A stretch of 64,000 nt of DNA. It comes from Azospirillum cavernae (GTDB lineage Bacteria; Pseudomonadota; Alphaproteobacteria; Azospirillales; Azospirillaceae). The notes below the pieces were generated by a model that was given only the letters and a program-made list of their open reading frames with translations, was not told where the DNA came from and ran no database searches. A program made the translations under genes and the position numbers. Location of the stretch: contig NZ_QYUL01000001.1 in NCBI RefSeq assembly GCF_003590795.1, positions 699,001-763,000 of the forward strand, given 5' to 3'. Positions 3,234-58,567 of the stretch are shown in pieces; within the stretch, counting starts at the first letter, position 1, and each line of letters starts with the position of its first letter.

Positions 3234-3578
3234 ATGATGGAATACAAGGGTTACAAGGCCCAGATCGACTTCGACAACGAGGCGGGATTGTTCGTCGGCG
3301 AGGTCATCAACACCCATGACGGCATCGGTTTTTCCGGGCGGTCGGTGGACGAGCTGAAGGACGCCTTCCATCGGGCGGTCGAGGATTATCTTGAGTTGTC
3401 GTGCGACATGGGGGGGGAGGTCAACCAGCCCTTTTCCGGCCAACTCGCCATCCGCGTGAATCCCATGCTGCACCGGGCCATCGCCACCTGCGCCGAACGG
3501 GAAGGCAAGAGCGTGACCGCCTGGATCGCCGAATGCCTGAGCCGGGCGACGGGCGTGTCCAACCAGCGCGACGGCTGA
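3234..3578 (+). CDS. HicB-family protein without a HicA partner
   Basis: A 114-residue protein starting MMEYKGYKAQIDFD. The N-terminal part is the partly degraded RNase-H-like HicB fold (EAGLFVGEVINTHDGIGFSG, then DELKDAFHRAVEDYLE); the C-terminal part (RVNPMLHRAIATCAEREGKSVTAWIAECL) is a ribbon-helix-helix DNA-binding domain. AGGA lies eight bases before ATG 3234, which decides the start over longer in-frame readings. HicB proteins normally neutralise HicA mRNases and autoregulate; no HicA gene is seen on either side, so this is a solitary antitoxin-like regulator or a remnant. Its stop codon sits in a 14-bp tandem duplication. Confidence 0.82.
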   Translation: MMEYKGYKAQIDFDNEAGLFVGEVINTHDGIGFSGRSVDELKDAFHRAVEDYLELSCDMGGEVNQPFSGQLAIRVNPMLHRAIATCAEREGKSVTAWIAECLSRATGVSNQRDG

Positions 3579-3600
3579 CCGGATTCGGCTGACCGGATTC
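3573..3600. repeat. 14-bp tandem duplication over the hicB stop codon
   Basis: Two perfect, immediately adjacent copies of GGCTGACCGGATTC. The first contains the hicB stop TGA (3576-3578), the second repeats it at 3590-3592. One of at least seven similar duplications in the window. Confidence 0.95.
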
Positions 3601-3799
3601 GCGTTTTGCAAAGCCCTTTGCGATTGAATTGTTCAGTCTTTGCAACACGCAACATGTCCCGAAGCCCAAAGCGGGCGGAAAATGGTCCGACGCCTGCGGT
3701 TTGGTGATGTTTCGTTTCTGAAACGCATTGTTTGGCAGGCCGCAAGATTGGCATTCCGTTTGCTTGCCTCCCCTGAAATGAGAATCAAAGGGGGACGCC

Positions 3800-5488
3800 A
3801 TGAGCGGAACAAAACTAACCTTGCGGGCCAAGCTCTGGGCGTTGGTCGCGTTGGCGAGCGTCGCGTCCATCAGCATCGCGGCGGCGGGCTTGTGGCTGAA
3901 CAAGCAAAGCATGCTTCAGGACCGCAAGGCCTCTCTCCAGCATGTCGTTGAAATCGCCCATGGTTTGGCCACTGGCTATGACGCCGAGGTCAAAGCCGGG
4001 CGGTTGACAAAGGAACAGGCCTTTGAACGTTACAAGGCCAACGTAAACACGATGCTTTACAACGGCAAAGATTACATCTTTGTCCAAAATCTCCAATACC
4101 AGACGGTCATCCACCCGTTCCGTCCCGACGTAATCGGCAAGGACCAGCGCGACAACAAGGATTCCAACGGGGTCTATTTCGTCCGCAATCTGGTGGACAC
4201 CGCCCGCAACAAGGGGCAGGGCTTCGTCGAATACATGTATCCGAAGCCAAACTCCGACATTCCTTTGCCCAAGCTCAGCTTTGTGAAGTTCTTCGAACCG
4301 TGGCAGCTTGAAATCGGCACGGGCGTCTACATCGACGATCTCGACGCGCGGTTCAACGAGAACCTCGTCAAGGTCATGGGCGTGGTCGCGCTGCTGGCGC
4401 TGCCGGTGATCGTTCTGATCGCGCTGGTCGGCAACGGCATCAGCACCCGCGTGCGCCGTTTGGCCGCCGCGATGGGGACGCTGGCGCAGGGGGACCTGTC
4501 GGTCGCCGTGCCGGAGACCACGCGCCAGGACGAGTTGGGCGACATGGGCCGCGCGGTGCAGGTCTTCAAGGAAAACGCCGAGGCCCGCCGCCGTTTGGAA
4601 GCCGAACAGGTCGCCGTGACCCAGCGCGCCGAACAGGACAAGCGTCAGTCGATGGACCGGCTGGCCCATGGTTTTGAAGGATCGGTCGGCGGCATGATTC
4701 AAGCGGTGACGGCGACGACCAGCGAATTGGAACAGAAGGTCCGCGCCATGTCGCAGGCGGCCGACCAGACCAACCATCTGGCGAGCGTTGTCGCGATGGC
4801 CAGCGACACCACGGCGGCCAACGTGCAGACGGTGGCGGCGGCCTCGCAGCAACTCAGCAGCTCGATTGTTGAGATTGGTCAGCAGGTGACGGAAGCCAGC
4901 CGGGTGGCCGAGGAAGCGGTCGGCTTGGCCCAGCAGGCCAACAACCGAATCGGCAGCTTGGCCGACGCGGTGGACAAGATCGGCGCCGTGGTCGGCCTTA
5001 TCAACTCCATCGCCGGGCAAACCAACCTGTTGGCGCTGAACGCCACCATCGAAGCGGCGCGGGCTGGCGAGGCTGGCAAGGGCTTCGCCGTGGTGGCGTC
5101 GGAGGTCAAGGCGCTGGCCAACCAGACCGCCAAGGCCACCGATGAAATCGGCGGACAGATGAGCGGCATCCAATCCGTGACCGGACAGGCGGTGATGGAA
5201 ATCCAGCGCGTCGCCGCCGTGATCGACCGGCTGAGCAACATCGCCACGGCAATTTCGGCGGCGGTCGAGGAGCAGAACGCCGCCACCGCCGAAATTTCCC
5301 GTAGCGTCCAGCAGGCCGCCGCCGGAACCGGCGAGGTGTCGAGCAGCATCGCGGGCGTCACCGTGGCGTCGGACCAAAGCGGGCGGACGGCGCGCGAGTT
5401 GGTGGACGCGCTGGGCAAGCTCAGCGGGCAGGCCGACGGGCTGAAGAGTCAGGTCAGCAGCTTCCTCAACACCGTGCGCGCGGCCTGA
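3800..5488 (+). CDS. Methyl-accepting chemotaxis protein with periplasmic Cache domain
   Basis: A 562-residue transmembrane chemoreceptor. Order: first membrane segment (about 10-30), a periplasmic single-Cache domain (about 35-185; note [13 protein letters not shown] and [13 protein letters not shown]), second membrane segment (about 190-212), HAMP (about 213-265), then the cytoplasmic signalling domain with the conserved hairpin tip [20 protein letters not shown]. Cache domains of this type bind small carboxylates or similar ligands; the ligand is unknown. GGGGG precedes the ATG. The gene stands alone, interrupting the gap/fba neighbourhood. It ends before a palindromic repeat and a two-way terminator. 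Confidence 0.93.
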
Positions 5489-5510
5489 TCGGACAGGGGC
5501 TGGCGCGCTC

Positions 5511-5620
5511 TGCCCCCTCCCTAACCCTCCCCCGCTTTGCGGGAGAGGGGACAAGGCTGAAGCCCGACAAAGCTCCTGTCTCCCTCTCCCGCAAAGCGGG
5601 GGAGGGTTAGGGAGGGGGCA
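5511..5620. repeat. Nested palindromic intergenic repeat, copy A
   Basis: Two 40-base arms (5511-5550 and 5581-5620) are inverted complements with 39 of 40 matches, around a 30-base centre. Each arm contains its own small palindrome CCCGCTTTGCGGG. The core of an arm, CCCTCCCCCGCTTTGCGGGA, recurs with one change at 44633, so this is a dispersed family. It lies between the chemoreceptor and the terminator. Transcribed, it would fold into a very stable cruciform or hairpin. Confidence 0.95.
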
Positions 5621-5651
5621 AGCAACCCCCACCACATCCTCCACACAAACA

Positions 5652-5685
5652 AAAAGGGCGCTCCCCATCAGGGAAGCGCCCTTTT
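5652..5685. terminator. Bidirectional intrinsic terminator between the chemoreceptor and gap
   Basis: Stem AAAAGGGCGCT / AGCGCCCTTTT with extra CCC/GGG pairs inside. The A tract on one side and T tract on the other allow it to stop transcription from both the chemoreceptor (plus) and gap (minus), which converge here. Confidence 0.9.
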
Positions 5686-5710
5686 CTCAATCCGGCGAGC
5701 CGGTAAGCGG

Positions 5711-6718
5711 TTACTTCGCGTTGACCATGGCGACGGCGGTGTCGCTCATGCGGTTCGAGAAGCCCCACTCATTGTCGTACCAGGTCATGATGCGGACGAA
5801 GTTGCCGCCGATCACCTTGGTCTCGTTCAGCGCGAAGATCGAGCTGTGCGGATCATGGTTGAAGTCGGTCGACACCAGCGCTTCCGTGTAGGCGCCCAGG
5901 ATGCCCTTCAGCGGGCCGTTGGCGGCGTCGGAGATCGCCTTGGTGATCTCCTCCACCGTGGTGGCGCGCTTGGAGTTGAACTTGAAATCGACGACCGAGA
6001 CGTTCGGGGTCGGCACGCGGATGGCGGTGCCGTCCAGCTTGCCCTTCAGGCCCGGCAGAACCTTGCCGACGGCCTTGGCGGCGCCGGTCGAGGTCGGGAT
6101 CATGTTCAGCGCGGCGGCGCGGGCGCGGTGCAGGTCGCTGTGGTTGGTGTCCACAATGCGCTGGTCGCCGGTGTAGGAGTGGATGGTGGTCATGAAGCCG
6201 TGTTCGATGCCGACGAGGTTGTCGAGCACGAAGGCGACCGGCGCCAGGCAGTTGGTGGTGCAGGAGGCGTTGGAGACGATGCGGTGCTCCGCCTTCAACT
6301 GGTCATGGTTGACGCCATAGACGACCGTGATGTCTTCGTCGGTGGCCGGGGCGGAGATCAGCACCTTCTCGGCGCCCGCTTCCAGATGCTTGGCGGCGGC
6401 GTCGCGCTTGGTGAAGATGCCCGAGCATTCCATGGCGACCTGGACGCCCAGATCCTTCCAGGGCAGCTTGGCCGGGTCACGCTCCTGCACGACCTTGATC
6501 TCGTGGCCGTTGACGATCAGAACGCCGTCGCGGGTCTCGATGGTGCCGGGGAAACGGCCATGGACGCTGTCATACTTCAGCAGATGGGCGTTGGCCTTGA
6601 GGTCGGCGAGGTCGTTGATCGCCACGACCTCGACGTCCTTGCGGCCGCTCTCATAGATGGCCCGCAGAACCAGACGGCCGATGCGGCCAAAACCGTTGAT
6701 CGCTACCCGAACAGCCAT
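5711..6718 (-). CDS. gap: Glyceraldehyde-3-phosphate dehydrogenase, type I
   Basis: The 335-residue enzyme oxidises glyceraldehyde-3-phosphate with phosphate and NAD. The N-terminal Rossmann motif INGFGRIGR (7-15), an aspartate after the second strand (IND, residue 36, favouring NAD), and the catalytic segment SNASCTTNC (Cys153) are intact. Start at ATG 6718 is fixed by GGAGGA five bases upstream; an upstream TTG is ignored. It lies about 60 bases downstream of tkt on the same strand, forming a tkt-gap pair. The phosphoglycerate kinase gene usually next in line is absent; the operon ends at the terminator at 5652. Confidence 0.96.
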   Translation of the reverse strand: MAVRVAINGFGRIGRLVLRAIYESGRKDVEVVAINDLADLKANAHLLKYDSVHGRFPGTIETRDGVLIVNGHEIKVVQERDPAKLPWKDLGVQVAMECSGIFTKRDAAAKHLEAGAEKVLISAPATDEDITVVYGVNHDQLKAEHRIVSNASCTTNCLAPVAFVLDNLVGIEHGFMTTIHSYTGDQRIVDTNHSDLHRARAAALNMIPTSTGAAKAVGKVLPGLKGKLDGTAIRVPTPNVSVVDFKFNSKRATTVEEITKAISDAANGPLKGILGAYTEALVSTDFNHDPHSSIFALNETKVIGGNFVRIMTWYDNEWGFSNRMSDTAVAMVNAK

Positions 6719-6781
6719 GTCTTCCTCCAATATGAAAATTGACGGCGCCCTTTGGATGCCGGGCGCCGCCGCCGCTTTTTC

Positions 6782-8779
6782 TCAGAGACGCGCCTTGACG
6801 GCGGCTGTGACCGCTTCGGCGGTGATGCCGAAGTGCTTGTAAAGCTCTTGATAGGGGGCCGACTCGCCGAAACCGGCCATGCCGATGAACACCCCGTCGC
6901 TGCCCAGCCAGCGGTCCCAGCCCAGCCGGATCGCCGCCTCGACGCCGACGCGCACGCCGTCGCCCAGAACCGCCGCCTGATAGGCCGAATCCTGCTCGGC
7001 GAACAGCTCCCAGCTCGGCATCGACACCACGGCGGTCCCGATCCCGTCGGCCTGGAGCGCCGCGCGGGCCTCCATCGCCAACGACACCTCGGAGCCGGTG
7101 GCGAGGATGGTCGCCTTGCGGTCGCCCTCGGCCTCGGCCAGAACATAGGCGCCGCGCGCGCTGCGGTTTTCCGCCGTGTGCTCGGTGCGCAGGGTCGGAA
7201 CGTTCTGACGGGTCAGCGCCAGCACCGACGGGCCGTTCACCCGCTCCAGCGCGATCTGCCAGCATTCGGCGGTTTCCACCGCGTCGCCGGGGCGCAGAAC
7301 CAGCAGGTTGGGGATGGCGCGCAGGGCTGCCAGATGCTCGACCGGCTGGTGGGTCGGGCCGTCTTCGCCCAGACCAATGGAGTCGTGCGTCATCACGAAG
7401 ATGGAGCGCTGCTTCATCAGCGCGGCCAGACGGATCGCCGGGCGGCAGTAATCGGCGAACTGCATGAAGGTGCCGCCGTAGGGAATGACGCCGCCATGCA
7501 GCGCCATGCCGTTCATCAGCGTGGCCATGCCATGCTCGCGCACGCCATAGCGGACATACTGACCGGCGAATTCGCCCCGGCCCTTCACGTCGACGCTGCC
7601 CTTGGCCTTGGTGTTGTTCGACGGCGTCAGGTCGGCGGAGCCGCCGACCATCTCCGGGATCAACGGAACCAGGATGTCCAGCGTGTTGCCCGAGGCGACG
7701 CGGGTGGCCCAGCTCGGCTTGTCGGCGCTGATTTTGGCCTTGAAGGCGACGATGGCGTCGTTCAGCGCGGCGGGAACGCCACGGCTGACGGCCTGCGCGA
7801 AGGCGGCTTGCGTGGCGGAATCCTGCGCGTTCAGGCGGGCGGTCCAGGCGGCGAGCGCGTCGGCGCTGCGGGCGCCGGCGGCGCGCCAGGCCGACAGAAC
7901 ATCGTCGGGAACGACGAAGGGCGCGTGCGGCCAGTCGATGGCGACGCGGGTCGCGGCGATTTCATCGGCGCCCAGCGGCGAGCCGTGGCAGCCATGGGTG
8001 TTCGCCTTGGTCGGCGCGCCCTTGCCGATGATGGTGCGGCAGGCGATCAGCGTCGGCTTGTCGGTCGAGGCGCGGGCCTGGGTGATGGCGGCCTCGACGG
8101 CGGCCATGTCGTGGCCGTCCACGGAGATCGTGTTCCAGCCATAGGAGCGGAAGCGCGCCGGGGTGTCGTCGGTGAAGCTGAGGTCGGTCGAGCCGTCGAT
8201 GGAGATGTGGTTGTCGTCCCACAGCACGATCAGGCGGTTCAGCCCCAGATGACCGGCCAGCGAGCACGCCTCGTGGCTGACGCCCTCCATCAAATCGCCG
8301 TCCGACGCGATGACGTAGGTGGTGTGATCGACCAGCGCGTCGCCAAAGCGGGCGTTGGTGATCCGCTCGGCCAGCGCGAAGCCGACGGCGGTGGACACGC
8401 CCTGACCCAGCGGGCCGGTGGTCATCTCGATGCCCAGCGACGGATCGACCTCCGGGTGGCCTGGGGTCAGGCTGCCCAACTGGCGGAAGCGCTTGATCTC
8501 CTCGATCGTCATCCGCTCATAGCCGGTCAGATAGCCCAGCGCGTAGATGAGCGCGGAGCCGTGACCGGCGGACAGGATGAAGCGGTCGCGGTCGGCCCAG
8601 TTCGGGGTTTTCGGATCGAACTTCAGGAATTTGGTGAACAGGACCGTCGCGACGTCGGCCATGCCCATCGGCATGCCGGGGTGGCCGGACTTCGCGGCCT
8701 CGACCGCGTCCATGGCGAGCGCGCGGATCGCGTTCGCCATCGTCTGAAGGGAAGGCTGGGCGGAAGAGGCTGCGGACAT
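6782..8779 (-). CDS. tkt: Transketolase
   Basis: A 665-residue thiamine-diphosphate enzyme moving two-carbon units in the pentose-phosphate or Calvin cycle. Motifs seen: SGHPGMPMG near the N terminus, the ThDP/Mg motif [13 protein letters not shown] followed by NHISIDG, and the pyrimidine domain with [15 protein letters not shown]. Start chosen at ATG 8779 (MSAASSAQ) with AGGA about ten bases upstream. It heads the tkt-gap transcript. In related bacteria it lies directly opposite the DUF4164-zapA genes; here an unknown gene has been placed between them. Confidence 0.95.
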
Positions 8780-9233
8780 CGGGGCGGTTTCCTGAGGTCG
8801 AACGCGTGGGACGCGCGATGGGCGACAACCGCGCGGGAGGCGCGATGGGCACAACAGAGTTGCGGGCGCCTGTCAAGGCTCCACAAGACGCGCGCACCAT
8901 GCCGCTCCCTCGCCCCTAGGTCAACATGGGAATGGGGCGTCGTATGGCATGGCTGACGGGGTGGGAATGGCGGCGGGCGTCGGCCACAGATGAAAAATCC
9001 GAGAGAAAATATTACGAATAAAACATATCAAAAGATGCAGCGTTGATTCAACTTGTCTTAAAAAGTAGTATTAATTCTCTATACAACATCGAGTTGCTAG
9101 TGCGAAAAATCGTTCAGCAAATTTGGAGACAAATCCAATCTTGCTCGTGATTGTCGCAGAAGAAAATCGAAAATCACGCGTTGAAAGGATGAAAAATCCT
9201 CCTAAAAATCCCTCATTTTTGAAATGGTGACGC
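8780..9233. promoter_or_regulatory. AT-rich divergent region between tkt and the unknown 512-residue gene
   Basis: The tkt-proximal third is GC-rich like the rest of the window; from about 8990 the sequence becomes strongly AT-rich up to the next start codon. A reasonable plus-strand promoter is TTGATT (9043-9048), 17-base spacer, TAGTAT (9066-9071), giving a long leader of about 150 bases. A small hairpin GGAT-GAAAA-ATCC lies near 9187. The abrupt base-composition change suggests acquired DNA. A short minus-strand frame here (9071-9271) has no supporting features. Confidence 0.5.
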
Positions 9234-10772
9234 ATGTCTAACGGCTTTCCGTACAACCAAATTCTCACCACCTATTCGCCGAGTGCAGGAACGTACGAAG
9301 GTTATACTTTTGCCGCCGCCGTGTGGGCCAACGGGTTGACGATGGTGGAGCTGCAAAACGGCACGGATTCGAGTGGAACTCCGGGGTACAGCTATCAATG
9401 CGTTCCCGGCATTGACGCCAATGGAGATTCCAACACCAGCCTGACGTTCCTGGTCAACACCAACAACGCCACGCAGGATCCGCCATATTATTTCCTGTGC
9501 GGATCAACGGCCAAACACGTCATTCTTTATTCGTTCACGCCGCAGGCCACGCCATCCGATTTGACGTCGGATTGCATCTCGCAAATGTCCACGGTCATCA
9601 CGCTGGACTGCCCGGTGGCCAGCGTGATGTTCTATCCGCCGACGGGGGTTCTGTACGTCGCTGGCTCGAATGGCGATTTGTCGACCTGGACGGTGACGTT
9701 CGACAGTGAGACCGGAATCCCCTCCGTCGCCTCGATCAACAGCACCAACGTCTATGATTCCGCGCCCAATGGGCAGATCCAGCTTTTCCTGGTCAACACG
9801 GGGAGCGGTTCTCCCTACGCGGTGGCCACCGGGCTGTGCACCTCGACGCAAAATGGGCTGGTGTATTTCAGCGCGGATTTGCAGGAAACCGGCTTCCTGA
9901 GCGACACCCCCGCCGACACGGTCGCGATCGCCCCGGCGCCCAACGGTCTCTACGCCGTCACCGCCACCACGTTGCAGTATTACAACGCGGCCAACATCAA
10001 GACGTCGCAGGCGCTCGCGGACTCGTTCACGGCGCCTTGGCAAACGCAGGTCACGGCGCCAAGTGGGACGACGTTCACCTCGGCGACCTTCTGCGCAATG
10101 CCCGGCGTGACCGACTATCCGCAGGGGCTGTTGCTGATCGGCGGTTACATCGGATCGTCCGACAACAGCGACGAAAACGGCGTGGTGTACGCCTACAATC
10201 CGGCGACCGGAAGCAGCGAGGAGCTGGAGAGCAGCATCTCTGGACCCGTCTATGGCATTATCGGCGATTGCGTCACCCACGCGTTGTATTGCAACGGTTC
10301 CAACGGGTTGGGCTTTCTCAATCTGAATCCTGGCGCGGATGGCGCGTTGAACACCACCCTCGTGGTGAACACGCCAACGAAGTCAAACGGGAAGGGATGG
10401 CTGCACATTCTTGAAGACATCGCTTTTGCGGCGATCGTCGTCGCCACGACCGCCGTCGGCGCGCCGGAGGTCGCCGTCGAGGAGGTGGAGTTGGACGCCG
10501 GAGCCGACGCCGTTGTTGATGAGAGTGGCTATGACGCTGATTCAGAAGACAACGATGACACCGATTCTGAAGGCGGTGATGACGATGACGCGCCGGTGAA
10601 CGACGCTCAACTGGCGCAGTCCCAGGCGGTGCAGGCTCCGCCGCCGGTTGATGGAACGCCGACCGATGGCGTTGACGCGCCGATGAACGACGCTCAACTG
10701 GCGCAGTCCCAGGTGAACCAGGCTCAGCCGCCGGTCGATGGAACGCCGACGGCCGGGGCCAACAACGTCTGA
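9234..10772 (+). CDS. Unknown protein: beta-rich body, hydrophobic segment, acidic and repeat tail
   Basis: I do not recognise the 512-residue product. Residues about 1-390 are rich in Gly, Ser, Thr, Asn, Tyr and short beta-type segments (for example SVMFYPPTGVLYVAGSNG, VYAYNPATGSSEELESS), resembling a beta-propeller in texture. There is no N-terminal signal peptide. A hydrophobic stretch follows (HILEDIAFAAIVVATTAV, about 388-405), then an acidic linker with DADSEDNDDTDSEGGDDDD, then two 29-residue repeats starting DAPVNDAQLAQSQ and DAPMNDAQLAQSQ, with PPPVDGTPT. GGTGA precedes ATG. Codon use is less GC-biased than its neighbours. It stands alone between tkt and the DUF4164-zapA group, probably acquired. 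A surface or structural role is only a guess. Confidence 0.7.
   Translation: MSNGFPYNQILTTYSPSAGTYEGYTFAAAVWANGLTMVELQNGTDSSGTPGYSYQCVPGIDANGDSNTSLTFLVNTNNATQDPPYYFLCGSTAKHVILYSFTPQATPSDLTSDCISQMSTVITLDCPVASVMFYPPTGVLYVAGSNGDLSTWTVTFDSETGIPSVASINSTNVYDSAPNGQIQLFLVNTGSGSPYAVATGLCTSTQNGLVYFSADLQETGFLSDTPADTVAIAPAPNGLYAVTATTLQYYNAANIKTSQALADSFTAPWQTQVTAPSGTTFTSATFCAMPGVTDYPQGLLLIGGYIGSSDNSDENGVVYAYNPATGSSEELESSISGPVYGIIGDCVTHALYCNGSNGLGFLNLNPGADGALNTTLVVNTPTKSNGKGWLHILEDIAFAAIVVATTAVGAPEVAVEEVELDAGADAVVDESGYDADSEDNDDTDSEGGDDDDAPVNDAQLAQSQAVQAPPPVDGTPTDGVDAPMNDAQLAQSQVNQAQPPVDGTPTAGANNV
10587..10760 (+). repeat. 87-bp tandem repeat, two copies, inside the unknown gene
   Basis: Copies start at 10587 and 10674, encoding the 29-residue units. 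The shared run GACGCTCAACTGGCGCAGTC is identical and the rest is near-identical, so the duplication is recent at DNA level. Confidence 0.9.
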
Positions 10773-11853: not shown

Positions 11854-12444
11854 ATGACCGACCCGCTGGGGACCGACCCGCTGGGCAAGGACGCTGCCCG
11901 TGCTGTGGCGCGCGTCGTGCGCGACTCCATCGCCGACCCGGACCCGCGCGACCGCGCGGCTTTGGCGGTGCGCGACCGGCTCGCGCAACTCGCCCTTCCC
12001 ATGGCGAGCGTTGGCGGCTACTGGCCGCTTGGGTCGGAACTCGACGTTCGGCCCGCTTTGCTCCATTTTAAACAAGCAGGTTACGCGGTGGCGCTGCCGG
12101 TCTCCGGGCCGCGCGGCACGGCGCTGGTCTTTCGCGATTGGGATCCGGCGCTGCCGATGGCGGCGGGCCGCTATGGGATTCAGGAGCCGGACGCGAGCCG
12201 TCCAGTGCTTCAGCCTGGGGTTCTGCTGGTGCCGTTGCTGGCCTTCGACCGCAGCGGCCAGCGTTTGGGCTATGGGGCGGGTTATTACGACCGGACGCTC
12301 GACGCGCTGCGCGCGCGTGGTCCGGTGGTCGCGGTCGGCGTCGCCTTCGCGGCGCAGGAGGTTGCGGCGGTGCCCTGCGGCCCGCATGACGAGCGGTTGG
12401 ATTGGATTGTGACGGAGCGCGAGACGCTCCGTTTTGGGGAATAA
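11854..12444 (+). CDS. 5-formyltetrahydrofolate cyclo-ligase
   Basis: A 196-residue protein that converts 5-formyl-THF to methenyl-THF using ATP. The family signature LGYGAGYYDRTLD (about 141-153) and the preceding PGVLLVPLLAFD are intact. The first residues MTDPLGTDPLGKD come from a perfect 15-bp tandem duplication, which inserted five codons right after the ATG. No strong ribosome binding site is visible before ATG 11854. It follows the 6S RNA candidate, as in E. coli, where the RNA and this gene are co-transcribed, and precedes a YmdB-type gene by ten bases. Confidence 0.92.
   Translation: MTDPLGTDPLGKDAARAVARVVRDSIADPDPRDRAALAVRDRLAQLALPMASVGGYWPLGSELDVRPALLHFKQAGYAVALPVSGPRGTALVFRDWDPALPMAAGRYGIQEPDASRPVLQPGVLLVPLLAFDRSGQRLGYGAGYYDRTLDALRARGPVVAVGVAFAAQEVAAVPCGPHDERLDWIVTERETLRFGE
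11856..11885. repeat. 15-bp tandem duplication at the start of the cyclo-ligase gene
   Basis: Two perfect adjacent copies of GACCGACCCGCTGGG starting in the ATG codon itself; in frame, it duplicates the pentapeptide TDPLG. Confidence 0.95.
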
Positions 12445-37789: not shown

Positions 37790-38986
37790 TTACGCCGCCG
37801 GGGCCTCGCCCTCGCCCCAGACCAGGCTGTTGAACAGGGGTTCGATCACCGTCGGCCCCAGATCGCGGGTGATGAAGACCAGCTTGGTGCGTTGATCCTC
37901 GCTGGGCCATTCCTCCAGCCGGACGGGGGGATGGAACATGTGCTGGACGCCATGGACCACCACCGGCAGGTCGCTTTCCTGGACGTTCAACAGCCCCTTC
38001 ACCCGCAACAGATTGTCGCCGCCCTGGGCGATCAGCGCCTCCATGAAATCGACGAAGCCGTTCCAGGGAACGCGGCGGTCGATCACCATGCAGAAGGCGC
38101 GGATGTGGTCGTCGTGGCGGTTGGCGTCATGGTGGTGGTGATCGTGGCCGCAATCGGCGGCGCAATGATCGCCATGCTCATGCTCATGCTCATGCTCATG
38201 ATCGTGGTGATGATCGTCATGCGTGTGGTCATGCCCATGCTCACCATGCTCATGATGCTCATGTCCATGATGCCCATCTTCATGATGGTCATGGCCGCGC
38301 GCCTGTTCGTCGCGATAGGCCTCTTCGCGCAGCCAGCGGACGACGTCCGGGCTTTTGGTCTCCGGGTTGTAGAGACCGGCGTCGAACAGCACGGCCGGGT
38401 CGATGGCGCCATGGGCGGCGGGGATGATCGGGGCCGCCGGGTTGATGGCGTTCAGCCGCTTCATCAGCGCGACGGTCGCGGCGGGGGCGGCCACGTCGGT
38501 CTTGGTCAGCACGATGCGGTCGGCGACGGCGGCCTGTTTGACGCTTTCCGGCTGGCGGTCAAGCTGGCTGGAGCCGTGGGCGGCGTCCACCGTGGCGATG
38601 ACGCCGTCCAGACGGAAGCGGGCGGCCAGCAGCGGATCGGTCATCAGCGTGTGGATGATCGGCGCGGGATCGGCGAGGCCCGTGGTTTCCACCACCACCC
38701 GCTCGAAATCCGGCACCTCGCCGCGCACCCGCTTCAGGAACAGGTCGCGCAGCGTGTCCACCAGATCGCCCCGGATGGTGCAGCACAGGCAGCCGCTGTC
38801 CATCAGCACCATGTTTTCCGACGCCTTGGCGACCAGCAGATGGTCCAGCCCGACCTCGCCAAACTCGTTGATGATGACGGCGGTGCGGGCCATGGCGGGA
38901 TGGCGCAGCAACGCTTGCAGCAGCGTGGTCTTGCCGCTGCCGAGAAAGCCGGTGAGCACCGAAACGGGCAGGCGGGGGGAGGTCAC
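37790..38986 (-). CDS. Histidine-rich G3E-family GTPase (CobW/ZNG1-like zinc chaperone)
   Basis: A 398-residue metal-chaperone GTPase. Walker A GFLGSGKTT (13-21), the metal-binding CxCC in GCLCCTIR (66, 68, 69), the guanine motif LTKTD, and a histidine-rich loop (about 234-292, HHEDGHHGHEHHEHGEHGHD and further HxHxH runs) that would bind zinc. A CobW_C domain follows. Its start overlaps the zur stop, so both are one operon; members under Zur control deliver zinc to priority enzymes during starvation. Confidence 0.93.
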   Translation of the reverse strand: MTSPRLPVSVLTGFLGSGKTTLLQALLRHPAMARTAVIINEFGEVGLDHLLVAKASENMVLMDSGCLCCTIRGDLVDTLRDLFLKRVRGEVPDFERVVVETTGLADPAPIIHTLMTDPLLAARFRLDGVIATVDAAHGSSQLDRQPESVKQAAVADRIVLTKTDVAAPAATVALMKRLNAINPAAPIIPAAHGAIDPAVLFDAGLYNPETKSPDVVRWLREEAYRDEQARGHDHHEDGHHGHEHHEHGEHGHDHTHDDHHHDHEHEHEHEHGDHCAADCGHDHHHHDANRHDDHIRAFCMVIDRRVPWNGFVDFMEALIAQGGDNLLRVKGLLNVQESDLPVVVHGVQHMFHPPVRLEEWPSEDQRTKLVFITRDLGPTVIEPLFNSLVWGEGEAPAA

Positions 38987-44204: not shown

Positions 44205-44594
44205 ATGGCCACCGTGACCTTCGCAGGCCCGACCCTGCCGAAAGACGTGACCGTCTACGCCATCGCCGGCGACACCAGCACGCTGCTGGCGTTGGCGAAA
44301 AAGAACAACATCACCATCCCCTTCCAGTGCCAGGACGGCGAGTGCGGCTCCTGCCTCGTCAAAGTGACCTATCTGGACGGCAAGACCCCGATGGCCATCC
44401 ACCTGACGGAAAAGGAAAAGGTCACTCTGTCGGTCAACGGCAAGCTGACCAAGGATCTGCTGGCCCAGGCCGAGGTGAACGACCGTCCGCCGCCCTACCG
44501 TCTGGCCTGCCAGTTCATCGTCCGCGACGAGAACATCCGCATCGAGTTCAGCGGCGAGCCGGGCGTCGAACCGGAACTGCGCAAGTCGGCCTGA
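44205..44594 (+). CDS. 2Fe-2S plant-type ferredoxin
   Basis: A 129-residue electron carrier. The cluster ligands are C42, C47 and C50 (FQCQDGECGSCLV) with the fourth at C102 (YRLACQF). The insert between third and fourth cysteine is longer than in minimal ferredoxins. GGAGG precedes ATG at normal spacing. The sigma-54-like promoter suggests nitrogen-, energy- or NifA-linked expression. The partner reductase is unknown. Its stop codon lies in a 15-bp tandem duplication. Confidence 0.92.
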   Translation: MATVTFAGPTLPKDVTVYAIAGDTSTLLALAKKNNITIPFQCQDGECGSCLVKVTYLDGKTPMAIHLTEKEKVTLSVNGKLTKDLLAQAEVNDRPPPYRLACQFIVRDENIRIEFSGEPGVEPELRKSA

Positions 44595-44615
44595 GGAGTC
44601 TCGGCCTGAGGAGTC
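44586..44615. repeat. 15-bp tandem duplication over the ferredoxin stop codon
   Basis: Two perfect adjacent copies of TCGGCCTGAGGAGTC; the ferredoxin TGA (44592-44594) is in the first copy. Confidence 0.95.
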
Positions 44616-44619
44616 GCCA

Positions 44620-44725
44620 GCCCCCTCCCTGACCCTCCCCCGCTTCGCGGGAGAGGGAAACGCGGCCCTCTCCCGCGAAGCGGGGGAGGGAGGGACCCAT
44701 GCGTCCGCATGGGGGGGAGGGGGCC
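44620..44725. repeat. Nested palindromic intergenic repeat, copy C
   Basis: Arms 44633-44657 and 44666-44690 are perfect 25-base inverted complements, each holding CCCGC-TTC/GAA-GCGGG. The outer right arm is interrupted by a small extra hairpin CCCATGCG-TC-CGCATGGG (44697-44714). The core differs from copy A (5511) by one base. It separates the ferredoxin from the end of the helicase gene. Confidence 0.93.
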
Positions 44726-52939: not shown

Positions 52940-53002
52940 GGGCGCGGACTATAGGAGCGGTGCGGGACGCCCGCAAGCGCCCGCGACGGGCCGCGCCGTG
53001 GT

Positions 53003-53032
53003 GGATCGGCTCAGGGCGGATCGGCTCAGGGC
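53003..53032. repeat. 15-bp tandem duplication over the GcvA-like gene's stop codon
   Basis: Two perfect adjacent copies of GGATCGGCTCAGGGC. The minus-strand stop (TGA, complement of 53026-53028) is in one copy and is repeated in the other. Confidence 0.95.
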
Positions 53033-53916
53033 GTTTTTCCGGCCTCCTCGAACAGCCAGTCGCGGAACGCCTTGACCTTGGGGCGGGTGAAGTAATGCGG
53101 CGGGGCGGCGACGTAATAGGCGAGGCTGCCGGGCAGATGCACGTCGAACAGTCGCACCAGCCGCCCGGCGGCGATGTCGTCGGCCACCAGAACGCCGCGC
53201 GCCAGGGCGATGCCGTGGCCGCTCATCGCCGCTTGCAGGGTGAAGGACGAATCGTCGAAGCGCAGGCCGCGCTCGACGTCCACCCCCTCGATCCCCGCCG
53301 CCCGGCACCACACCGCCCACGAGATGTTGTAATCATCATGCAACAGGGTGTGGTGACGCAGATCCTCCGGGCAAGTCAGCGGGTTGGCGTTTTTCAGCAA
53401 CGACGGATGGCTGACCGGGAAAATATCCTCGGTCAACAGCCGTTCGACCTGAAGATCTGGCCAATGGCCGCTGCCGAAGCGAATCGCCAAATCCACGTCC
53501 TGCCGGGCGAAATCGACGATCTGCGACGTGCTTTGCACCCGCACGTCCATGTCAGGGTAACGCTTTTGAAAGCGCATCAGGCGCGGCACCAGCCATTTCG
53601 ACGCGAAGCTCGGCATCGCCGAAATGGTCAGCGGCCCGGCGCTGTCGTTGCGGATCAGCCGTTCGGTCGCCTGGGACAGCGTGTCGAGCGCCTCGCGCAC
53701 CGACGGGACATAGCTCTGCCCGGCCTCCGTCAGGGCCAGCGCCCGGTTCATTCGGCGAAACAGAGGTAATCCGAGCCATTCCTCCAGCGCCTTGATTTGG
53801 TGGCTGACGGCGGCTTGGGTGACGTGCAGCTCGTCGGCGGCTTTTGTGAAAGACAGATGACGGGCGGCGGCGTCAAAGGCGCGAACCGCGTTCAGCGGCG
53901 GAAGTCGGCGGGACAT
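53026..53916 (-). CDS. LysR-family regulator, GcvA-like
   Basis: A 296-residue regulator. N-terminal winged helix RLPPLNAVRAFDAAARHLSF, with the recognition helix in LHVTQAAVSHQIKALEEWLG, then a linker helix and an effector domain (about 90-296) with the GcvA-type VDFARQDVDLAIRFGSG. Members bind small effectors such as amino acids. The target is unclear; no glycine-cleavage gene is near, so the name refers to similarity only. Confidence 0.88.
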   Translation of the reverse strand: MSRRLPPLNAVRAFDAAARHLSFTKAADELHVTQAAVSHQIKALEEWLGLPLFRRMNRALALTEAGQSYVPSVREALDTLSQATERLIRNDSAGPLTISAMPSFASKWLVPRLMRFQKRYPDMDVRVQSTSQIVDFARQDVDLAIRFGSGHWPDLQVERLLTEDIFPVSHPSLLKNANPLTCPEDLRHHTLLHDDYNISWAVWCRAAGIEGVDVERGLRFDDSSFTLQAAMSGHGIALARGVLVADDIAAGRLVRLFDVHLPGSLAYYVAAPPHYFTRPKVKAFRDWLFEEAGKTP

Positions 53917-54341: not shown

Positions 54342-54346
54342 GCGCG

Positions 54347-54769
54347 ATGAGCGGGGTTGCGGAACCGCAGGATCTGACCGGGCGCTGCCTGTGCGGCGGC
54401 TTGCGGTTCCGGCTGACCGAACGGCCCATGGGGGTGGTGAATTGCCATTGCGGCCAGTGCCGCCGCTTCCATGGCCATTTCGGCGCCTATGTCAGCGTGC
54501 CGCGCCCGACGGTGCGGTTCGAGGCGGAGGAGACGCTGCGCTGGTTCCAGTCGTCCGCCAAGGCGCAGCGTGGTTTTTGCGGGACCTGCGGCTCCTCCCT
54601 GTTCTGGAAGGGCGACGACAGCCCGTTTCTGGACGTCACGGCGGGGTGCTTGGACGCGCCGACCGGGCTGACCACGCTGCGGCATATTTTTGTCGCCGAC
54701 CAGGGTGATTATTACGTCATCGACGACGCGTTGGAGCGTTTCCCCGGAACCGCGTCGGAACCACCGTGA
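54347..54769 (+). CDS. GFA-family (glutathione-dependent formaldehyde-activating type) zinc protein
   Basis: A 140-residue protein with paired zinc-binding cysteines: GRCLCGGLRF, NCHCGQCRRFHG and FCGTCGSSLFW, the pattern of GFA/CENP-V family proteins. The family binds zinc and sometimes glutathione; whether this member acts on formaldehyde is unknown. Linked to the DUF1127 gene; a strong terminator follows. Confidence 0.9.
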   Translation: MSGVAEPQDLTGRCLCGGLRFRLTERPMGVVNCHCGQCRRFHGHFGAYVSVPRPTVRFEAEETLRWFQSSAKAQRGFCGTCGSSLFWKGDDSPFLDVTAGCLDAPTGLTTLRHIFVADQGDYYVIDDALERFPGTASEPP

Positions 54770-54808
54770 TCGGGACGGATCGCTGGTTTTTTGCAACACG
54801 CGCCCGCC

Positions 54809-54834
54809 GGGCCGGACTCCGTCCGGCCCTTTTT
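54809..54834 (+). terminator. Intrinsic terminator after the GFA gene
   Basis: Stem GGGCCGGAC / GTCCGGCCC with a TCC loop followed by TTTTT. Confidence 0.95.
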
Positions 54835-54942
54835 GTGTGTTTTGTCAGCGGGTTGGCGGTGGGGTTTTGAAGCTGCGCGATTCGGTCGCAGGTGTTGTGC
54901 GCTTGCAGCAAAAAGCTTTTGATTGACCGAAGGACCTATGGG

Positions 54943-54957
54943 TGAGAATGATTTGCA
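54943..54957 (+). promoter_or_regulatory. Fur-box candidate before the cupredoxin-FTR1 operon
   Basis: TGAGAATGATTTGCA matches the 7-1-7 Fur pattern TGATAATNATTATCA at eleven of fourteen defined positions. A promoter TTGACC (54923-54928) with a possible -10 AATGAT (54947-54952) overlaps it, so iron-bound Fur would block transcription. It is 38 bases before the cupredoxin ATG. Confidence 0.65.
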
Positions 54958-54995
54958 GACGCACATGCATTCCTTTCCCCTGAGGTCTCTTCCCG

Positions 54996-55331
54996 ATGCG
55001 CCCTTTGATCGCTCCGCTCGCCCTGTGCGCCGCTCTGCTGGCGCCGATGACGTCCGCGCTGGCCGATGACGCGCCGATCACCATCGTCATCAAGGACCAC
55101 ATGTTCACCCCCGCCGAGGTGAAGGTCCCCGCCAACAAGCGGGTGACTCTGCTGGTCGACAACCAGGACGCGACGTCGGAAGAGTTCGAGAGCGCCGAGT
55201 TGAAGGTCGAAAAGATCGTCGGCGGGCGCAAGCAGATCAAGGTTAGTTTCGGCCCGCTGAAACCCGGCAAATACCCCTTCTTCGGCGAATTCCACGAAGC
55301 CACCGCCAAGGGCGTCGTCATCGCCGAATGA
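54996..55331 (+). CDS. Periplasmic cupredoxin-domain iron-uptake protein (EfeO-like)
   Basis: A 111-residue protein with a signal peptide (about 1-23, ending SALA) and one cupredoxin domain (ITIVIKDHMFTPAEVKVPANK through FGEFHEATAKGVVIAE). This matches the N-terminal cupredoxin of EfeO and stand-alone partners of FTR1 permeases, thought to bind or oxidise Fe2+ or carry copper. The FTR1 gene follows 93 bases later, so they form one iron-import unit, probably Fur-controlled. Confidence 0.87.
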   Translation: MRPLIAPLALCAALLAPMTSALADDAPITIVIKDHMFTPAEVKVPANKRVTLLVDNQDATSEEFESAELKVEKIVGGRKQIKVSFGPLKPGKYPFFGEFHEATAKGVVIAE

Positions 55332-55347
55332 GGCGGGATCGCAGGGA

Positions 55348-55377
55348 CTGACCGCGTTTCCCCTGACCGCGTTTCCT
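55348..55377. repeat. 15-bp tandem duplication downstream of the cupredoxin gene
   Basis: CTGACCGCGTTTCCC followed directly by CTGACCGCGTTTCCT, 14 of 15 identical, 17 bases after the cupredoxin stop; both copies contain an in-line TGA. Confidence 0.95.
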
Positions 55378-55424
55378 CGTAAGAACCGCCGCGCTTCGTT
55401 GTTTTTGTCGGATTGGAGAACCCC

Positions 55425-56273
55425 ATGCTCGCCAGCCTGATCATCGTCTTCCGCGAGGTTCTGGAGGCCGGTCTCATCATCGGCATCGTCATGGCGGCGA
55501 CAAAGGGCGTGGTCGGTCGCGGGCGCTGGGTCGCCATCGGCATTGGCGCGGGCATCGTCGGCTCCTGCGTGGTGGCGTGGTTCGCCGACGCGATCAGCGG
55601 CATGTTCGCCGACACCGGGCAGGAGATGTTCAACGCCTGCGTTCTGCTGGTCGCCGTCGTCATGCTGGCGTGGCACAACGCCTGGATGGCCCAGCATGGG
55701 CGGGAGATGGCGCGCGACATGGCGGCGGTGGGCCGCGCGGTGTCGAACGGCGAACAATCGCTCGCCGCGCTGGCCGTGGTGATCGGCGTCGCTGTCCTGC
55801 GCGAAGGGGCCGAGGTGGTCCTGTTCCTCACCGGCATTCTGGCGTCGGAAGAGGGCGGTTTGACGACGGTGCTGGCGGGCGGTCTGGGCGGCGTGGCCTT
55901 GGGCGCGCTGATGTCCACCCTGATGTATGTCGGCTTGCTGCGCATCCCGACCCGTCACCTGTTCCGGGTGACGACGTGGCTGTTGACCCTGCTGGCGGCG
56001 GGCATGGCGGCGACCGCCATGTCCTTCCTGGCGCAAGCGGGCGTTCTGGAAAGCGGCGGGACCATCTTGTGGGACAGCTCCTGGATTTTGCGCGACAAGA
56101 GCGTGCTGGGGCAGGCGCTGCACGTCCTAATCGGCTACACCGACCGCCCGACCGAGGCGCAGTTGGCGGCCTATGTCGCCACCGTGCTGGCCATTCTGGC
56201 GCTGACCCGTGTGGCGGGCGGCGGCGGCAAACCCGCGCTGGCGGATCGCCGCGTCGCCAACCCGGCAGAGTAA
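55425..56273 (+). CDS. FTR1/EfeU-family iron permease
   Basis: A 282-residue inner-membrane protein with seven membrane segments. Both iron-binding REXXE motifs are present: FREVLEAG in the first helix and LREGAEVV in the fourth. GGAG six bases before ATG 55425 fixes the start. It works with the preceding cupredoxin. Its stop codon lies in a triple 15-bp tandem repeat. Confidence 0.93.
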   Translation: MLASLIIVFREVLEAGLIIGIVMAATKGVVGRGRWVAIGIGAGIVGSCVVAWFADAISGMFADTGQEMFNACVLLVAVVMLAWHNAWMAQHGREMARDMAAVGRAVSNGEQSLAALAVVIGVAVLREGAEVVLFLTGILASEEGGLTTVLAGGLGGVALGALMSTLMYVGLLRIPTRHLFRVTTWLLTLLAAGMAATAMSFLAQAGVLESGGTILWDSSWILRDKSVLGQALHVLIGYTDRPTEAQLAAYVATVLAILALTRVAGGGGKPALADRRVANPAE

Positions 56274-56305
56274 GGCCCGGCGGAGTAAAGTCGGGCGGAG
56301 TAACG
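56261..56305. repeat. Triple 15-bp tandem repeat over the FTR1 stop codon
   Basis: Three adjacent 15-base units at 56261, 56276 and 56291: CCCGGCAGAGTAAGG, CCCGGCGGAGTAAAG, TCGGGCGGAGTAACG. Each carries GAGTAA, so the TAA stop is present three times with the same spacing. Confidence 0.92.
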
Positions 56306-56307
56306 CT

Positions 56308-56853
56308 TCAGCGTTCGCGGTCAGTCCATTCCTCGGCGGAATTTTCATCCTCGGCGTCGCGTTCGGCCTGACGGCGCTGGTTGGCCAGCATGTCGAGCGC
56401 GCCTTGCAGGATGTAGGCGGCGGCCATCTTGTCCACCACCTCGTCCCGCCTTTTGCGGGTCATGTCGGCCTCGCCGATCATGAAGCGCTCCACCGCCGAG
56501 GTGGACAGCCGCTCGTCCCAAAAGGCGATCTGCGCGTCCCAGCCCAGCAGGTCGGCGCGCTCTTCCAAATTCTTGGCGAAGGCGCGCACGGACTCGACGC
56601 GCGGCCCCTCGGTGCCGTCCATGTTCAACGGCAAGCCGACGACCAGCCCGCCGACGCTGTAATCGCGAATCGTCTTGGCCAGTTCGCGGGCGTCCTGGGT
56701 GAATTTCGTCCGCATCAGAACGCCGATGGGCGAGGCGACGATCAATCCGGGATCGGCGACGGCCAACCCGACGGTCTTGGAGCCAACATCCAGCCCAAGC
56801 AGGCGCTGGCCTCTGCCCAACCGGGCGGTGAGTTCGGGGAGTGTGTGAATCAT
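56308..56853 (-). CDS. ruvX: RuvX/YqgF-family RNase H-like nuclease
   Basis: A 181-residue protein of the YqgF family, required for 16S rRNA 5'-end maturation and also called a putative Holliday-junction resolvase. LLGLDVGSKTVGLAVAD is the RNase-H-fold start with the catalytic aspartate; GLPLNMDG, FWDERLSTSAVE and KMAAAYILQGALD follow in family order. ATG 56853 chosen over upstream in-frame ATGs. The acidic tail ENSAEEWTDRER is variable in the family. Confidence 0.93.
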   Translation of the reverse strand: MIHTLPELTARLGRGQRLLGLDVGSKTVGLAVADPGLIVASPIGVLMRTKFTQDARELAKTIRDYSVGGLVVGLPLNMDGTEGPRVESVRAFAKNLEERADLLGWDAQIAFWDERLSTSAVERFMIGEADMTRKRRDEVVDKMAAAYILQGALDMLANQRRQAERDAEDENSAEEWTDRER

Positions 56854-57278
56854 GCCCCGGACCATAGGATCCCGGACGTCCCCCGGCAAGATCGCTCATT
56901 GACGTGACGTCACGGGGGGAATCTGAAACCGTGAGCAAGAGGAAGCGATTTTCGGACACGGATGAACACGGATACCCACGGATGAACACGGATAAAAATT
57001 ATATGGCTTGATCCGTGTTCATCCGTTGGCCGACGACGTCGGCATCCGTGTTCATCCGTGTCAAAATTCCGCGCGATCAAACGGCCTTGTCCTGAGTGGG
57101 GCGCACGACTGTCGCCCGCGCGGCGCGCGTTTTGCGCCACGCCGTCATGCGCGAACGGCTGCGGCGGCGCAGCATCGGTTGGGTGACAAGGCCCGCTGTT
57201 GGCGTTACGGTGCGCCTTCGCTTTGCCGTGGCCCGTCGTCGGAGTGTTTCGCGGCGGACGGGCCGTTGACCAAGACGG
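56854..57278. other. Intergenic region between ruvX and serA
   Basis: Holds the four-copy 16-mer array (56958-57059, listed separately) and about 200 bases of serA upstream sequence. No gene or clear promoter was recognised; TGACGTCA-like palindrome CGTGACGTCACG lies at about 56903-56914. Confidence 0.5.
56958..57059. repeat. Four exact copies of a 16-mer, two direct then two inverted
   Basis: ACGGATGAACACGGAT at 56958-56973 and 56978-56993; its complement ATCCGTGTTCATCCGT at 57011-57026 and 57044-57059. The spacer between the last two contains the palindrome GCCGAC-GAC-GTCGGC. The whole block could extrude as a cruciform. No open reading frame crosses it meaningfully. Confidence 0.95.
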
Positions 57279-58532
57279 ATGCCGACCGTGACCAAGCTCT
57301 CGCTCTCCAAGGACAAGATCAACATCCTTCTGTTGGAAGGGGTTCACGACAACGCCATCGACGAGTTGGCGCGGGGCGGTTACGCCTCGGTCGAGCGCCT
57401 GCCGCGCGCGCTGGACGAAGAGGAATTGCTGGAGCGCATCGGCTCCGTCCATATTCTCGGCATCCGTTCGCGCACGCATCTGACCGCGCGCGTTCTGGAG
57501 GCGGCCAGCAAGCTGATGGCCGTCGGCTGTTTCTGCATCGGCACCAACCAGGTCGATCTGAAGGCGGCGCGCCGTCTGGGCATCCCCGTCTTCAACGCCC
57601 CCTATTCCAACACCCGGTCGGTGGCCGAGCTGGTGATCGGCGAGATCATCATGCTGATGCGCGGCATCTTCGAGAAGTCGGCGCTGGTCCATGGCGGCGG
57701 CTGGATGAAGTCGGCCAAGGATTCCTACGAGATTCGCGGCAAGACGCTGGGCATCGTCGGCTATGGCCACATCGGCACCCAGGTGTCGATCCTGGCCGAA
57801 GCGATGGGCATGCAGGTCCGTTATTACGACGTGGTCCGCAAGCTGGCCCTGGGCAACGCCCGTCCCTGCGAGACGCTGGAGGAGCTGCTTTCGGTCTCCG
57901 ACGTCGTCACTCTGCATGTGCCGGACACCCCGCAGACCCGCAACATGATCGGCGCGGCGGAACTGGCGTCGATGAAGCCGCGCAGCCATCTCATCAACGC
58001 CGCGCGCGGTCAGGTCGTGGACATTCCGGCGCTGGCCGCCGCGATGGAGTCGGGCCATGTGCTGGGCGCCGCCATCGACGTCTTCCCCAAGGAACCGGGG
58101 GCCGACAACGAGGTGTTCGAAAGCGCGCTGCGCGGCATCAAGACCGCCATCCTGACCCCGCACATCGGCGGTTCGACGGTGGAGGCGCAGGCCAACATCG
58201 GCACCGAGGTGGCGCAGAAGCTGATCGAGTATTCGGACAACGGATCCACCGTCGGGGCGGTCAATTTCCCGCAGGTGGCCTTGCCGGTGCAACTGGGCTG
58301 CACGCGCTTCCTGCACGTTCACGAAAACCGTCCGGGCATGCTGCGCAAGGTGAACGAGGTGTTTTCGGGCCGCGACCTGAACATCGCCGCGCAGTTCCTG
58401 CAAACCGATCCCGAGCTGGGCTATGTCGTCGTCGATGTCGATGGCGAGGTGGACGAGCTGGAGGTCACGAACGATCTGCGCGCCATCGACGGCACGCTGA
58501 AGGCGCGCTTCCTGTTTCCGGGCAAGCGTTGA
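57279..58532 (+). CDS. serA: D-3-phosphoglycerate dehydrogenase (ACT-domain type)
   Basis: A 417-residue enzyme starting serine synthesis. Substrate domain with FNAPYSNTRSVAELVIGEII, NAD motif GIVGYGHIGTQVS, catalytic arginine and histidine regions in LINAARGQVVDIPAL and LTPHIGGSTVEAQANIG, and a C-terminal ACT domain (VHENRPGMLRKVNEVFSG) that binds serine for feedback control. Length matches the E. coli-type enzyme. The terminator after it was formed by a 15-bp duplication. Confidence 0.95.
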   Translation: MPTVTKLSLSKDKINILLLEGVHDNAIDELARGGYASVERLPRALDEEELLERIGSVHILGIRSRTHLTARVLEAASKLMAVGCFCIGTNQVDLKAARRLGIPVFNAPYSNTRSVAELVIGEIIMLMRGIFEKSALVHGGGWMKSAKDSYEIRGKTLGIVGYGHIGTQVSILAEAMGMQVRYYDVVRKLALGNARPCETLEELLSVSDVVTLHVPDTPQTRNMIGAAELASMKPRSHLINAARGQVVDIPALAAAMESGHVLGAAIDVFPKEPGADNEVFESALRGIKTAILTPHIGGSTVEAQANIGTEVAQKLIEYSDNGSTVGAVNFPQVALPVQLGCTRFLHVHENRPGMLRKVNEVFSGRDLNIAAQFLQTDPELGYVVVDVDGEVDELEVTNDLRAIDGTLKARFLFPGKR

Positions 58533-58537
58533 TTTTG

Positions 58538-58567
58538 GCCTGAGGCTTTTTTGCCTGAGGCTTTTGT
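58538..58567 (+). terminator. serA terminator made of a 15-bp tandem duplication
   Basis: GCCTGAGGCTTTTTT followed by GCCTGAGGCTTTTGT, 14 of 15 identical. Because GCCTGAGGC is nearly self-complementary, the two copies pair with each other (eight of nine pairs) around a TTTTTT loop and are followed by TTTTGTT, giving an intrinsic terminator six bases after the serA stop. Confidence 0.8.

What the first reader, a model, noticed from the sequence alone, without database searches (positions are those of the whole stretch)
3573..58567. Recurrent 14-15-bp tandem duplications at gene ends
Seven separate loci carry immediately adjacent copies of a 14-15-base unit: 3573 (hicB stop, 14 bp), 11856 (cyclo-ligase start), 44586 (ferredoxin stop), 53003 (GcvA-like stop), 55348 (after cupredoxin), 56261 (FTR1 stop, three copies), 58538 (after serA). 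Six have period exactly 15. Units are unrelated in sequence, so this is not one repeat family but a shared process. By chance a perfect 14-base tandem match at a fixed period is expected far less than once in 64 kb. Copies survive where they do not disturb coding: next to stops, or in frame just after a start. A fill-in of staggered nicks, slippage over a fixed length, or an element that duplicates 15 bp are possible sources. I know of no described system that does this at stop codons.
Basis: seen in the sequence. Interest (0 to 1): 0.85.

Follow-up and report, generated by a model that had tools for sequence, protein, structure and literature searches.

The report
15-base tandem duplications across Azospirillum genomes
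Bacteria of the genus Azospirillum carry an unusual excess of small "stutter" insertions in which 14 or 15 DNA letters are repeated once in place, which points to a length-measuring mutation process of unknown cause rather than to a device that acts on stop codons.

Summary
The repeats are real. Four are perfect (3572, 11856, 44586, 53003); 55348 matches over 14 bases, 58538 over 14 of 15, and 56261 is three imperfect copies. The window is Azospirillum. A Markov control gave none at period 14-15. Perfect 14-15-bp duplications number 23 in 1.45 Mb of Azospirillum outside the window, against 2 in 1.45 Mb of other bacteria, mostly Alphaproteobacteria. With one mismatch allowed, and partly other controls, the excess is 3-4 fold. 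Between A. brasilense-group strains, distinct 12-17-bp indels number 51 beside 205 of 1-5 bp; in a smaller Sinorhizobium set, 2 beside 93. In noncoding DNA they form a hump at 14-16 bp. Perfect two-copy cases are 14 or 15 bp in 17 of 20 (a filtered set), mostly without microhomology, with no clear motif. Period 12 is also raised in coding DNA. Ku is absent from 42 of 42 Azospirillum genomes; the Pol I 5' nuclease domain is present in 41 of 42. Preference for gene ends is modest and partly reflects tolerance. I favour a fixed-stagger cut-and-fill process; the enzyme is unknown.

The parts
3572..3601 (.). 14-bp unit, two perfect copies (run 16), spanning the stop of the hicB-like ORF 3234-3578; aligned relatives have one copy
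11856..11885 (.). 15-bp unit, two perfect copies just after the start codon of the cyclo-ligase-like ORF 11854-12444, in frame; aligned relatives have one copy
44586..44615 (.). 15-bp unit, two perfect copies spanning the stop of the ferredoxin-like ORF 44205-44594
53003..53033 (.). 15-bp unit, two perfect copies (run 16) at the stop of the GcvA-like ORF 53026-53916 (minus strand)
55348..55376 (.). 15-bp period, 14 matching bases, 16 bases beyond the stop of the cupredoxin-like ORF ending 55331
56261..56303 (.). three imperfect 15-bp copies at the stop of the FTR1-like ORF 55413-56273
58533..58570 (.). 15-bp period, 14 of 15 matches beside a T-run, just beyond the stop of the serA-like ORF 57279-58532

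Best explanation
The seven repeats are independent members of a distinct mutational class in Azospirillum: tandem duplications of mostly 14-15 bp (range about 13-17), most of them made with little or no microhomology and with no clear target motif, and kept where they are harmless (between genes, across a stop, or in frame). Inferred mechanism: both strands are cut or nicked with a fixed stagger of about 15 nt, the ends stay held together, the single-stranded stretch is copied, and the product is sealed, as in the formation of a target-site duplication but with nothing inserted. Shown: the length class, the genus excess, mostly blunt junctions, strain polymorphism, and absence of Ku. Inferred only: the stagger, the filling-in, and the existence of one responsible enzyme.
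For: Length: near-perfect noncoding or edge duplications in 1.654 Mb of Azospirillum are 13:2, 14:11, 15:10, 16:3, 17:1, 18-20:3, 21-40:1; in coding DNA 15:25 against 18:0. Perfect two-copy cases number 13:1, 14:7, 15:10, 16:2, 17:0 (two sites appear twice, from different strains). Strain indels, noncoding: 7-11 bp, 4; 12-17 bp, 16; 18-23 bp, 2. Junctions in the filtered set: extra match of 0, 1, 2, 3 bases in 11, 5, 2, 2 cases, close to random duplications simulated (52, 28, 11, 5%). No position near the junctions carries more than 0.13 bits, with about 0.05 expected from sampling. Genus excess. Of 16 noncoding 12-17-bp strain indels, 11 are at least 80% tandem, so deletions of unique sequence of that size look rare.
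Against: No enzyme was identified. No mobile element with a 14-15-bp target duplication was found. Without the filter, 3 of 14 perfect noncoding cases have 4-6 bases of extra match, more than simulated (older gene calls), so some may be slippage. In coding DNA period 12 (52 cases) outnumbers period 15 (25) and is also above the controls (8 in 0.71 Mb of coding sequence), and strain indels of 12 bp are common there (12 beside 18 of 15 bp), which fits a fixed 14-15-bp ruler less well. The excess is only 3-4 fold when one mismatch is allowed (6 in 0.79 Mb of controls). Sister genus g15 (G032) shows 4 cases of period 14-15 in 80 kb. In coding DNA many 15-bp strain indels are not recognisably tandem: of 21 distinct 15-bp events 7 reach 80% and 9 match at 9 or fewer of 15 positions.
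Confidence: 0.42

Rival explanations
1. Ordinary replication slippage or Okazaki-flap mishandling makes small duplications of many sizes; the 14-15 bp peak is what is left after short ones escape detection and long perfect ones are lost again by slippage.
For: Other bacteria show a few duplications of 13-24 bp (older gene calls). 3 of 14 perfect noncoding cases have 4-6 bases of extra match. Period 12 is raised in coding DNA as well. Some loci hold arrays whose copy number changes between strains.
Against: Strain indels need no repeat detection and still dip at 7-11 bp and drop after 17 in noncoding DNA, though counts are small (4, 16, 2). The fall from 15 to 18 in coding DNA is 25 to 0. Most junctions in the filtered set have no microhomology. 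PF02739, the Pol I 5' nuclease domain, is present in 41 of 42 Azospirillum genomes.
Confidence: 0.27
2. Footprints of a mobile element or integrase (casposase-like or an insertion sequence) with a 14-15-bp target duplication that leaves or never inserts.
For: Fixed length, blunt junctions and no motif are typical of target-site duplications (general knowledge). [quoted passage not shown]
Against: No clear excess of spaced 14-15-bp direct repeats (older gene calls) and no strain-specific insert with a 14-15-bp overlap in the loci compared. Cas1-family genes are absent from 15 of 42 Azospirillum genomes, among them G002, G007 and G009, which have 3, 4 and 3 near-perfect 14-15-bp duplications in 80 kb each.
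Confidence: 0.12
3. Staggered breaks filled in and joined by Ku/LigD end joining, as in plant and animal cells.
For: Blunt tandem duplications are the expected product; in mammalian cells tandem duplications were 60.9% of mutagenic repair at breaks with 3' overhangs in wild type and 11.7% without Ku80 (PMC8355091, passages seen).
Against: Ku (PF02735) has no match in 42 of 42 Azospirillum genomes searched, the window's own included. The sister genome G049 (g14), which has Ku, shows no 14-15-bp duplications in 80 kb. Noncoding strain indels of 18-60 bp, which would hold the deletions of end joining, number 6.
Confidence: 0.04
4. Sequencing or assembly artefacts.
For: Only one assembly of the window's own genome is available here.
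Against: A. brasilense Sp7 and MTCC4038, two separate records, are identical over the 49 kb compared, so the 12-bp duplication of Sp7 is in both. Near-perfect 14-15-bp duplications occur in each of the eight Azospirillum genomes sampled and rarely shift the frame of a called gene.
Confidence: 0.03

Closest known systems
Small tandem duplications at staggered breaks in eukaryotes (Pol alpha-primase/CST and Ku dependent; rice insertions of Vaughn and Bennetzen 2014)
   Same: Short in-place duplications explained by copying of staggered single strands (PMC8355091, passages seen; the rice paper seen only as a citation there, not held)
   Different: Here a bacterium without Ku, a narrow length in noncoding DNA, and few candidate deletions
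Target-site duplication by casposases
   Same: 14-15-bp duplication at random sites (PMC6614799, passage seen)
   Different: No inserted element between the copies, and Cas1 genes are missing from 15 of 42 genomes
Replication slippage and minisatellites (VNTR)
   Same: Some loci hold three or more diverging copies and vary between strains
   Different: Most perfect two-copy duplications examined lack flanking repeats and have a preferred length
Duplications from defective flap processing (polA exonuclease or rad27 mutants; recalled, not read here)
   Same: Short tandem duplications
   Different: The Pol I 5' nuclease domain is present; the recalled cases involve flanking repeats

Membership tests
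Ku/LigD non-homologous end joining scar | Genome encodes Ku | tested here: not met
   0 of 42 Azospirillum genomes match PF02735; 10 of 37 genomes of other genera in the family do
Ku/LigD non-homologous end joining scar | Deletions of varied size accompany duplications | tested here: inconclusive
   6 noncoding indels of 18-60 bp between strains; not polarised
Replication slippage product | Flanking microhomology at the duplication ends | tested here: inconclusive
   16 of 20 perfect cases have 0-1 base of extra match in a set capped at 3; in an uncapped older set 3 of 14 noncoding cases have 4-6
Transposon target-site duplication or excision footprint | Occupied sites with 14-15-bp direct repeats around an insert | tested here: not met
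   None among the inserts found in strain comparisons and no clear excess of spaced repeats; limited sample
Casposase/Cas1 integrase product | Cas1-family gene present wherever duplications occur | tested here: not met
   15 of 42 Azospirillum genomes have no PF01867 match, including G002, G007 and G009, which have duplications
Pol I flap-processing defect | Loss of the Pol I 5' nuclease domain | tested here: not met
   PF02739 found in 41 of 42 Azospirillum genomes, own included; activity not testable
Staggered cut-and-fill duplication | A preferred duplication length | tested here: met
   Noncoding peak at 14-15 bp in static duplications and 14-16 bp in strain indels; coding DNA shows 12 as well as 15
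Staggered cut-and-fill duplication | Blunt junctions without microhomology | tested here: inconclusive
   Most but not all
Staggered cut-and-fill duplication | Two offset nicks observed in DNA | not testable with these tools
   Needs biochemistry or break mapping

The most novel reading that the evidence does not exclude
Azospirillum carries an enzyme or complex with a built-in 14-15-bp ruler that cuts both DNA strands with that stagger, holds the ends, and lets them be filled and sealed, so that it writes untargeted 15-bp duplications across the genome, somewhat more often near gene ends. It would be a bacterial indel process independent of Ku, of repeats and of mobile DNA.
Probability: 0.23. 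Interest if true: 0.8.

Novelty: new variant of a known kind. Interest (0 to 1): 0.55.

Why it matters
Bacterial indel spectra are usually taken to fall off smoothly with length (general knowledge). A separate hump at 14-16 bp in noncoding DNA, strong in one genus and weak in the neighbours sampled, would mean that insertion length can be set by a specific process that varies between lineages. Because 15 is a multiple of three, the same process adds five codons in frame, so it could feed protein evolution (25 such near-perfect cases in 1.45 Mb of coding DNA). It also offers strain markers, and a handle for finding the responsible enzyme by comparison of Azospirillum with its sister genera.

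Tried and rejected
Ku end joining: rejected, Ku absent. Loss of the Pol I 5' nuclease: rejected, domain present. Cas1/casposase: not in all genomes that show duplications. ATP-dependent ligase: matched in 71 of 79 genomes of the family, so it does not separate Azospirillum from its sisters. Mobile-element footprints: no clear excess of spaced repeats and no strain-specific inserts with a 14-15-bp overlap. Junction motif: none clear in 20 cases. A first gene finder mis-called several genes, serA among them; the class counts rest on it and are replaced, except where searches are still quoted and named as such. Rhizobium records gave no usable strain pair; the second Sinorhizobium region aligned only in part. 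Ten literature searches listed no paper on a 14-15-bp duplication class in bacteria; the library holds open papers only, and three listings were cut (12 of 41, 12 of 20 and 8 of 24 papers shown).
Full report
Observation. The window is Azospirillum (C1:699001-763000 of a 6.46 Mb genome; genus from named relatives). All seven repeats exist. Four are perfect two-copy duplications, 55348 is perfect over 14 bases, 58538 matches at 14 of 15, and 56261 is three imperfect copies. Random sequence with the same four-base context gave none at period 14 or 15 in five replicates of 464 kb, against 8 observed in 464 kb of real sequence.

Is it genus-wide? I sampled 864 kb of the own genome (13%), 400 kb from G014 and G011 together, 400 kb from five more Azospirillum genomes and 254 kb from named Azospirillum contigs. 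Controls were 400 kb from two distant genera of the class, 400 kb from five sister genera, and 1.05 Mb of other contigs, mostly Alphaproteobacteria. Perfect duplications of 14-15 bp: 27 in 1.52 Mb of Azospirillum (23 in 1.45 Mb without the window) against 2 in 1.45 Mb of the distant genera and other contigs (P = 2e-5). The Azospirillum count includes a few repeats in a proline-rich coding tract and one site present in two contigs. With one mismatch allowed, and the two distant and five sister genera as controls, the counts are 48 in 1.654 Mb against 6 in 0.79 Mb, a 3.8-fold excess (3.4 without the window). The eight Azospirillum genomes have 12-50 per Mb; the sister genera have 0, 0, 12, 0 and 50 per Mb, the last being G032 with GC-rich repeats; the distant genera have 0 and 5.

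Is there a preferred length? With improved gene calls (checked on S. meliloti locus L322, where 38 of 41 hand-listed annotated stops were recovered and 13 further calls made, some of them annotated genes that I had left off the list), near-perfect noncoding or edge duplications are 12:6, 13:2, 14:11, 15:10, 16:3, 17:1, 18:2, 19:1, 21:1. In coding DNA they are 12:52, 14:2, 15:25, 18:0, 21:1. Period 12 in coding DNA is also above the controls (8 in 0.71 Mb), and I ran no shuffled control at this tolerance; the class may therefore reach down to 12 where the frame bars 13 and 14, or coding repeats may be raised for other reasons. The fall from 15 to 18 in coding DNA is not explained by reading frame.

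Strain comparison. Two 49-kb regions of a large plasmid (chromid) from six strains of the A. brasilense group (91-97% identity) were aligned in all 15 pairs each. I kept indels with well-aligned 15-base flanks and merged like segments. Noncoding sizes: 1:99, 2:18, 3:11, 4:4, 5:3, 6:3, 7:1, 8:1, 11:2, 12:2, 13:1, 14:6, 15:3, 16:3, 17:1, 19:1, 21:1, 26:1, 28:1, 32:1, 45:1. Coding sizes include 3:30, 6:7, 9:5, 12:12 and 15:18. In all, 51 indels of 12-17 bp stand beside 205 of 1-5 bp; Sinorhizobium (three strains, 86-95% identity, 164 kb of pairwise alignment against 1.32 Mb) gives 2 beside 93 (odds ratio 11.6, P = 6e-6; noncoding alone 16/135 against 1/78, P = 0.008). Events at one locus are not fully independent. 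In one search, 7 of 21 distinct 15-bp events reach 80% tandem identity and 9 of 21 match at 9 or fewer of 15 positions; in noncoding DNA all 3 of the 15-bp events are tandem.

Junctions. Among 20 perfect two-copy duplications with at most 3 bases of extra match (two sites appear twice, from different strains), 11 have none, 5 have one, 2 have two and 2 have three; simulated duplications give 52, 28, 11 and 5%. Without the cap, 3 of 14 noncoding cases had 4-6 bases, and 8 of 12 coding ones had 4-9 (older gene calls). Many duplications therefore need no repeat, while some, above all in coding repeats, may be slippage. No clear motif surrounds the inferred cut positions.

Gene ends. Outside the window, 5 of 22 noncoding or edge duplications overlap a stop against 8% expected by position (P = 0.028). 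Between strains, 16 of 24 lie within -17 to +15 bp of a stop against 41 of 139 small indels (P = 0.0008), but these fall in 9 of 15 loci by my own grouping (P = 0.022 against ungrouped small indels), and against 2-5-bp indels P = 0.067. Small indels also crowd near stops, so tolerance explains a good part. A duplication that spans a stop leaves the protein unchanged, because the first copy keeps the stop. I conclude a modest preference, not a stop-codon device.

Mechanism. A narrow length in noncoding DNA, mostly blunt junctions, no clear motif and few candidate deletions argue for a fixed stagger that is filled and sealed without free ends. Ku is absent from all 42 Azospirillum genomes searched, the Pol I 5' nuclease domain is present in 41 of 42, Cas1 is missing from 15 of 42, and no mobile element with a matching target duplication was seen. 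The agent is unknown. The main rival is ordinary duplication followed by a length filter; the dip at 7-11 bp in strain indels and the genus difference speak against it but do not exclude it.

What was not shown: that the process is active now, that it acts through a stagger, that one enzyme does it, or that reads of the window's own strain carry the duplications.

Noticed in passing
window 44620-44724: A repeat that follows the ferredoxin duplication recurs widely; the 1.1-kb query holding it had 88 matches in the own genome, nearly all in this part and on both strands.
   Followed up: no
window 10578-10750: An 87-bp unit is repeated twice (89% matches) inside ORF 9234-10772, a multiple of three; a 27-bp repeat lies at 8803-8855.
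   Followed up: no
window 56956-57061: Copies of a CACGGATGAA-like 10-bp unit in direct and inverted orientation; similar units occur in another own stretch, L046.
   Followed up: no
window 38165-38293: Tract built of CATGCT and related repeats.
   Followed up: no
G000 C4:18175-18774: The own genome's only PF01068 ligase match is weak (52.7 bits) and on contig C4, unlike the match above 100 bits in most other Azospirillum genomes.
   Followed up: no
G000 C4:81297-81587: A second, shorter match to the Pol I 5' nuclease domain in a 291-aa frame; the other Azospirillum genomes searched have at most one match.
   Followed up: no
L288 46203, L289 46311 and the same site in other A. brasilense-group strains: An array of diverging 15-bp units containing TGA near a gene end, with copy number differing between strains.
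   Followed up: partly
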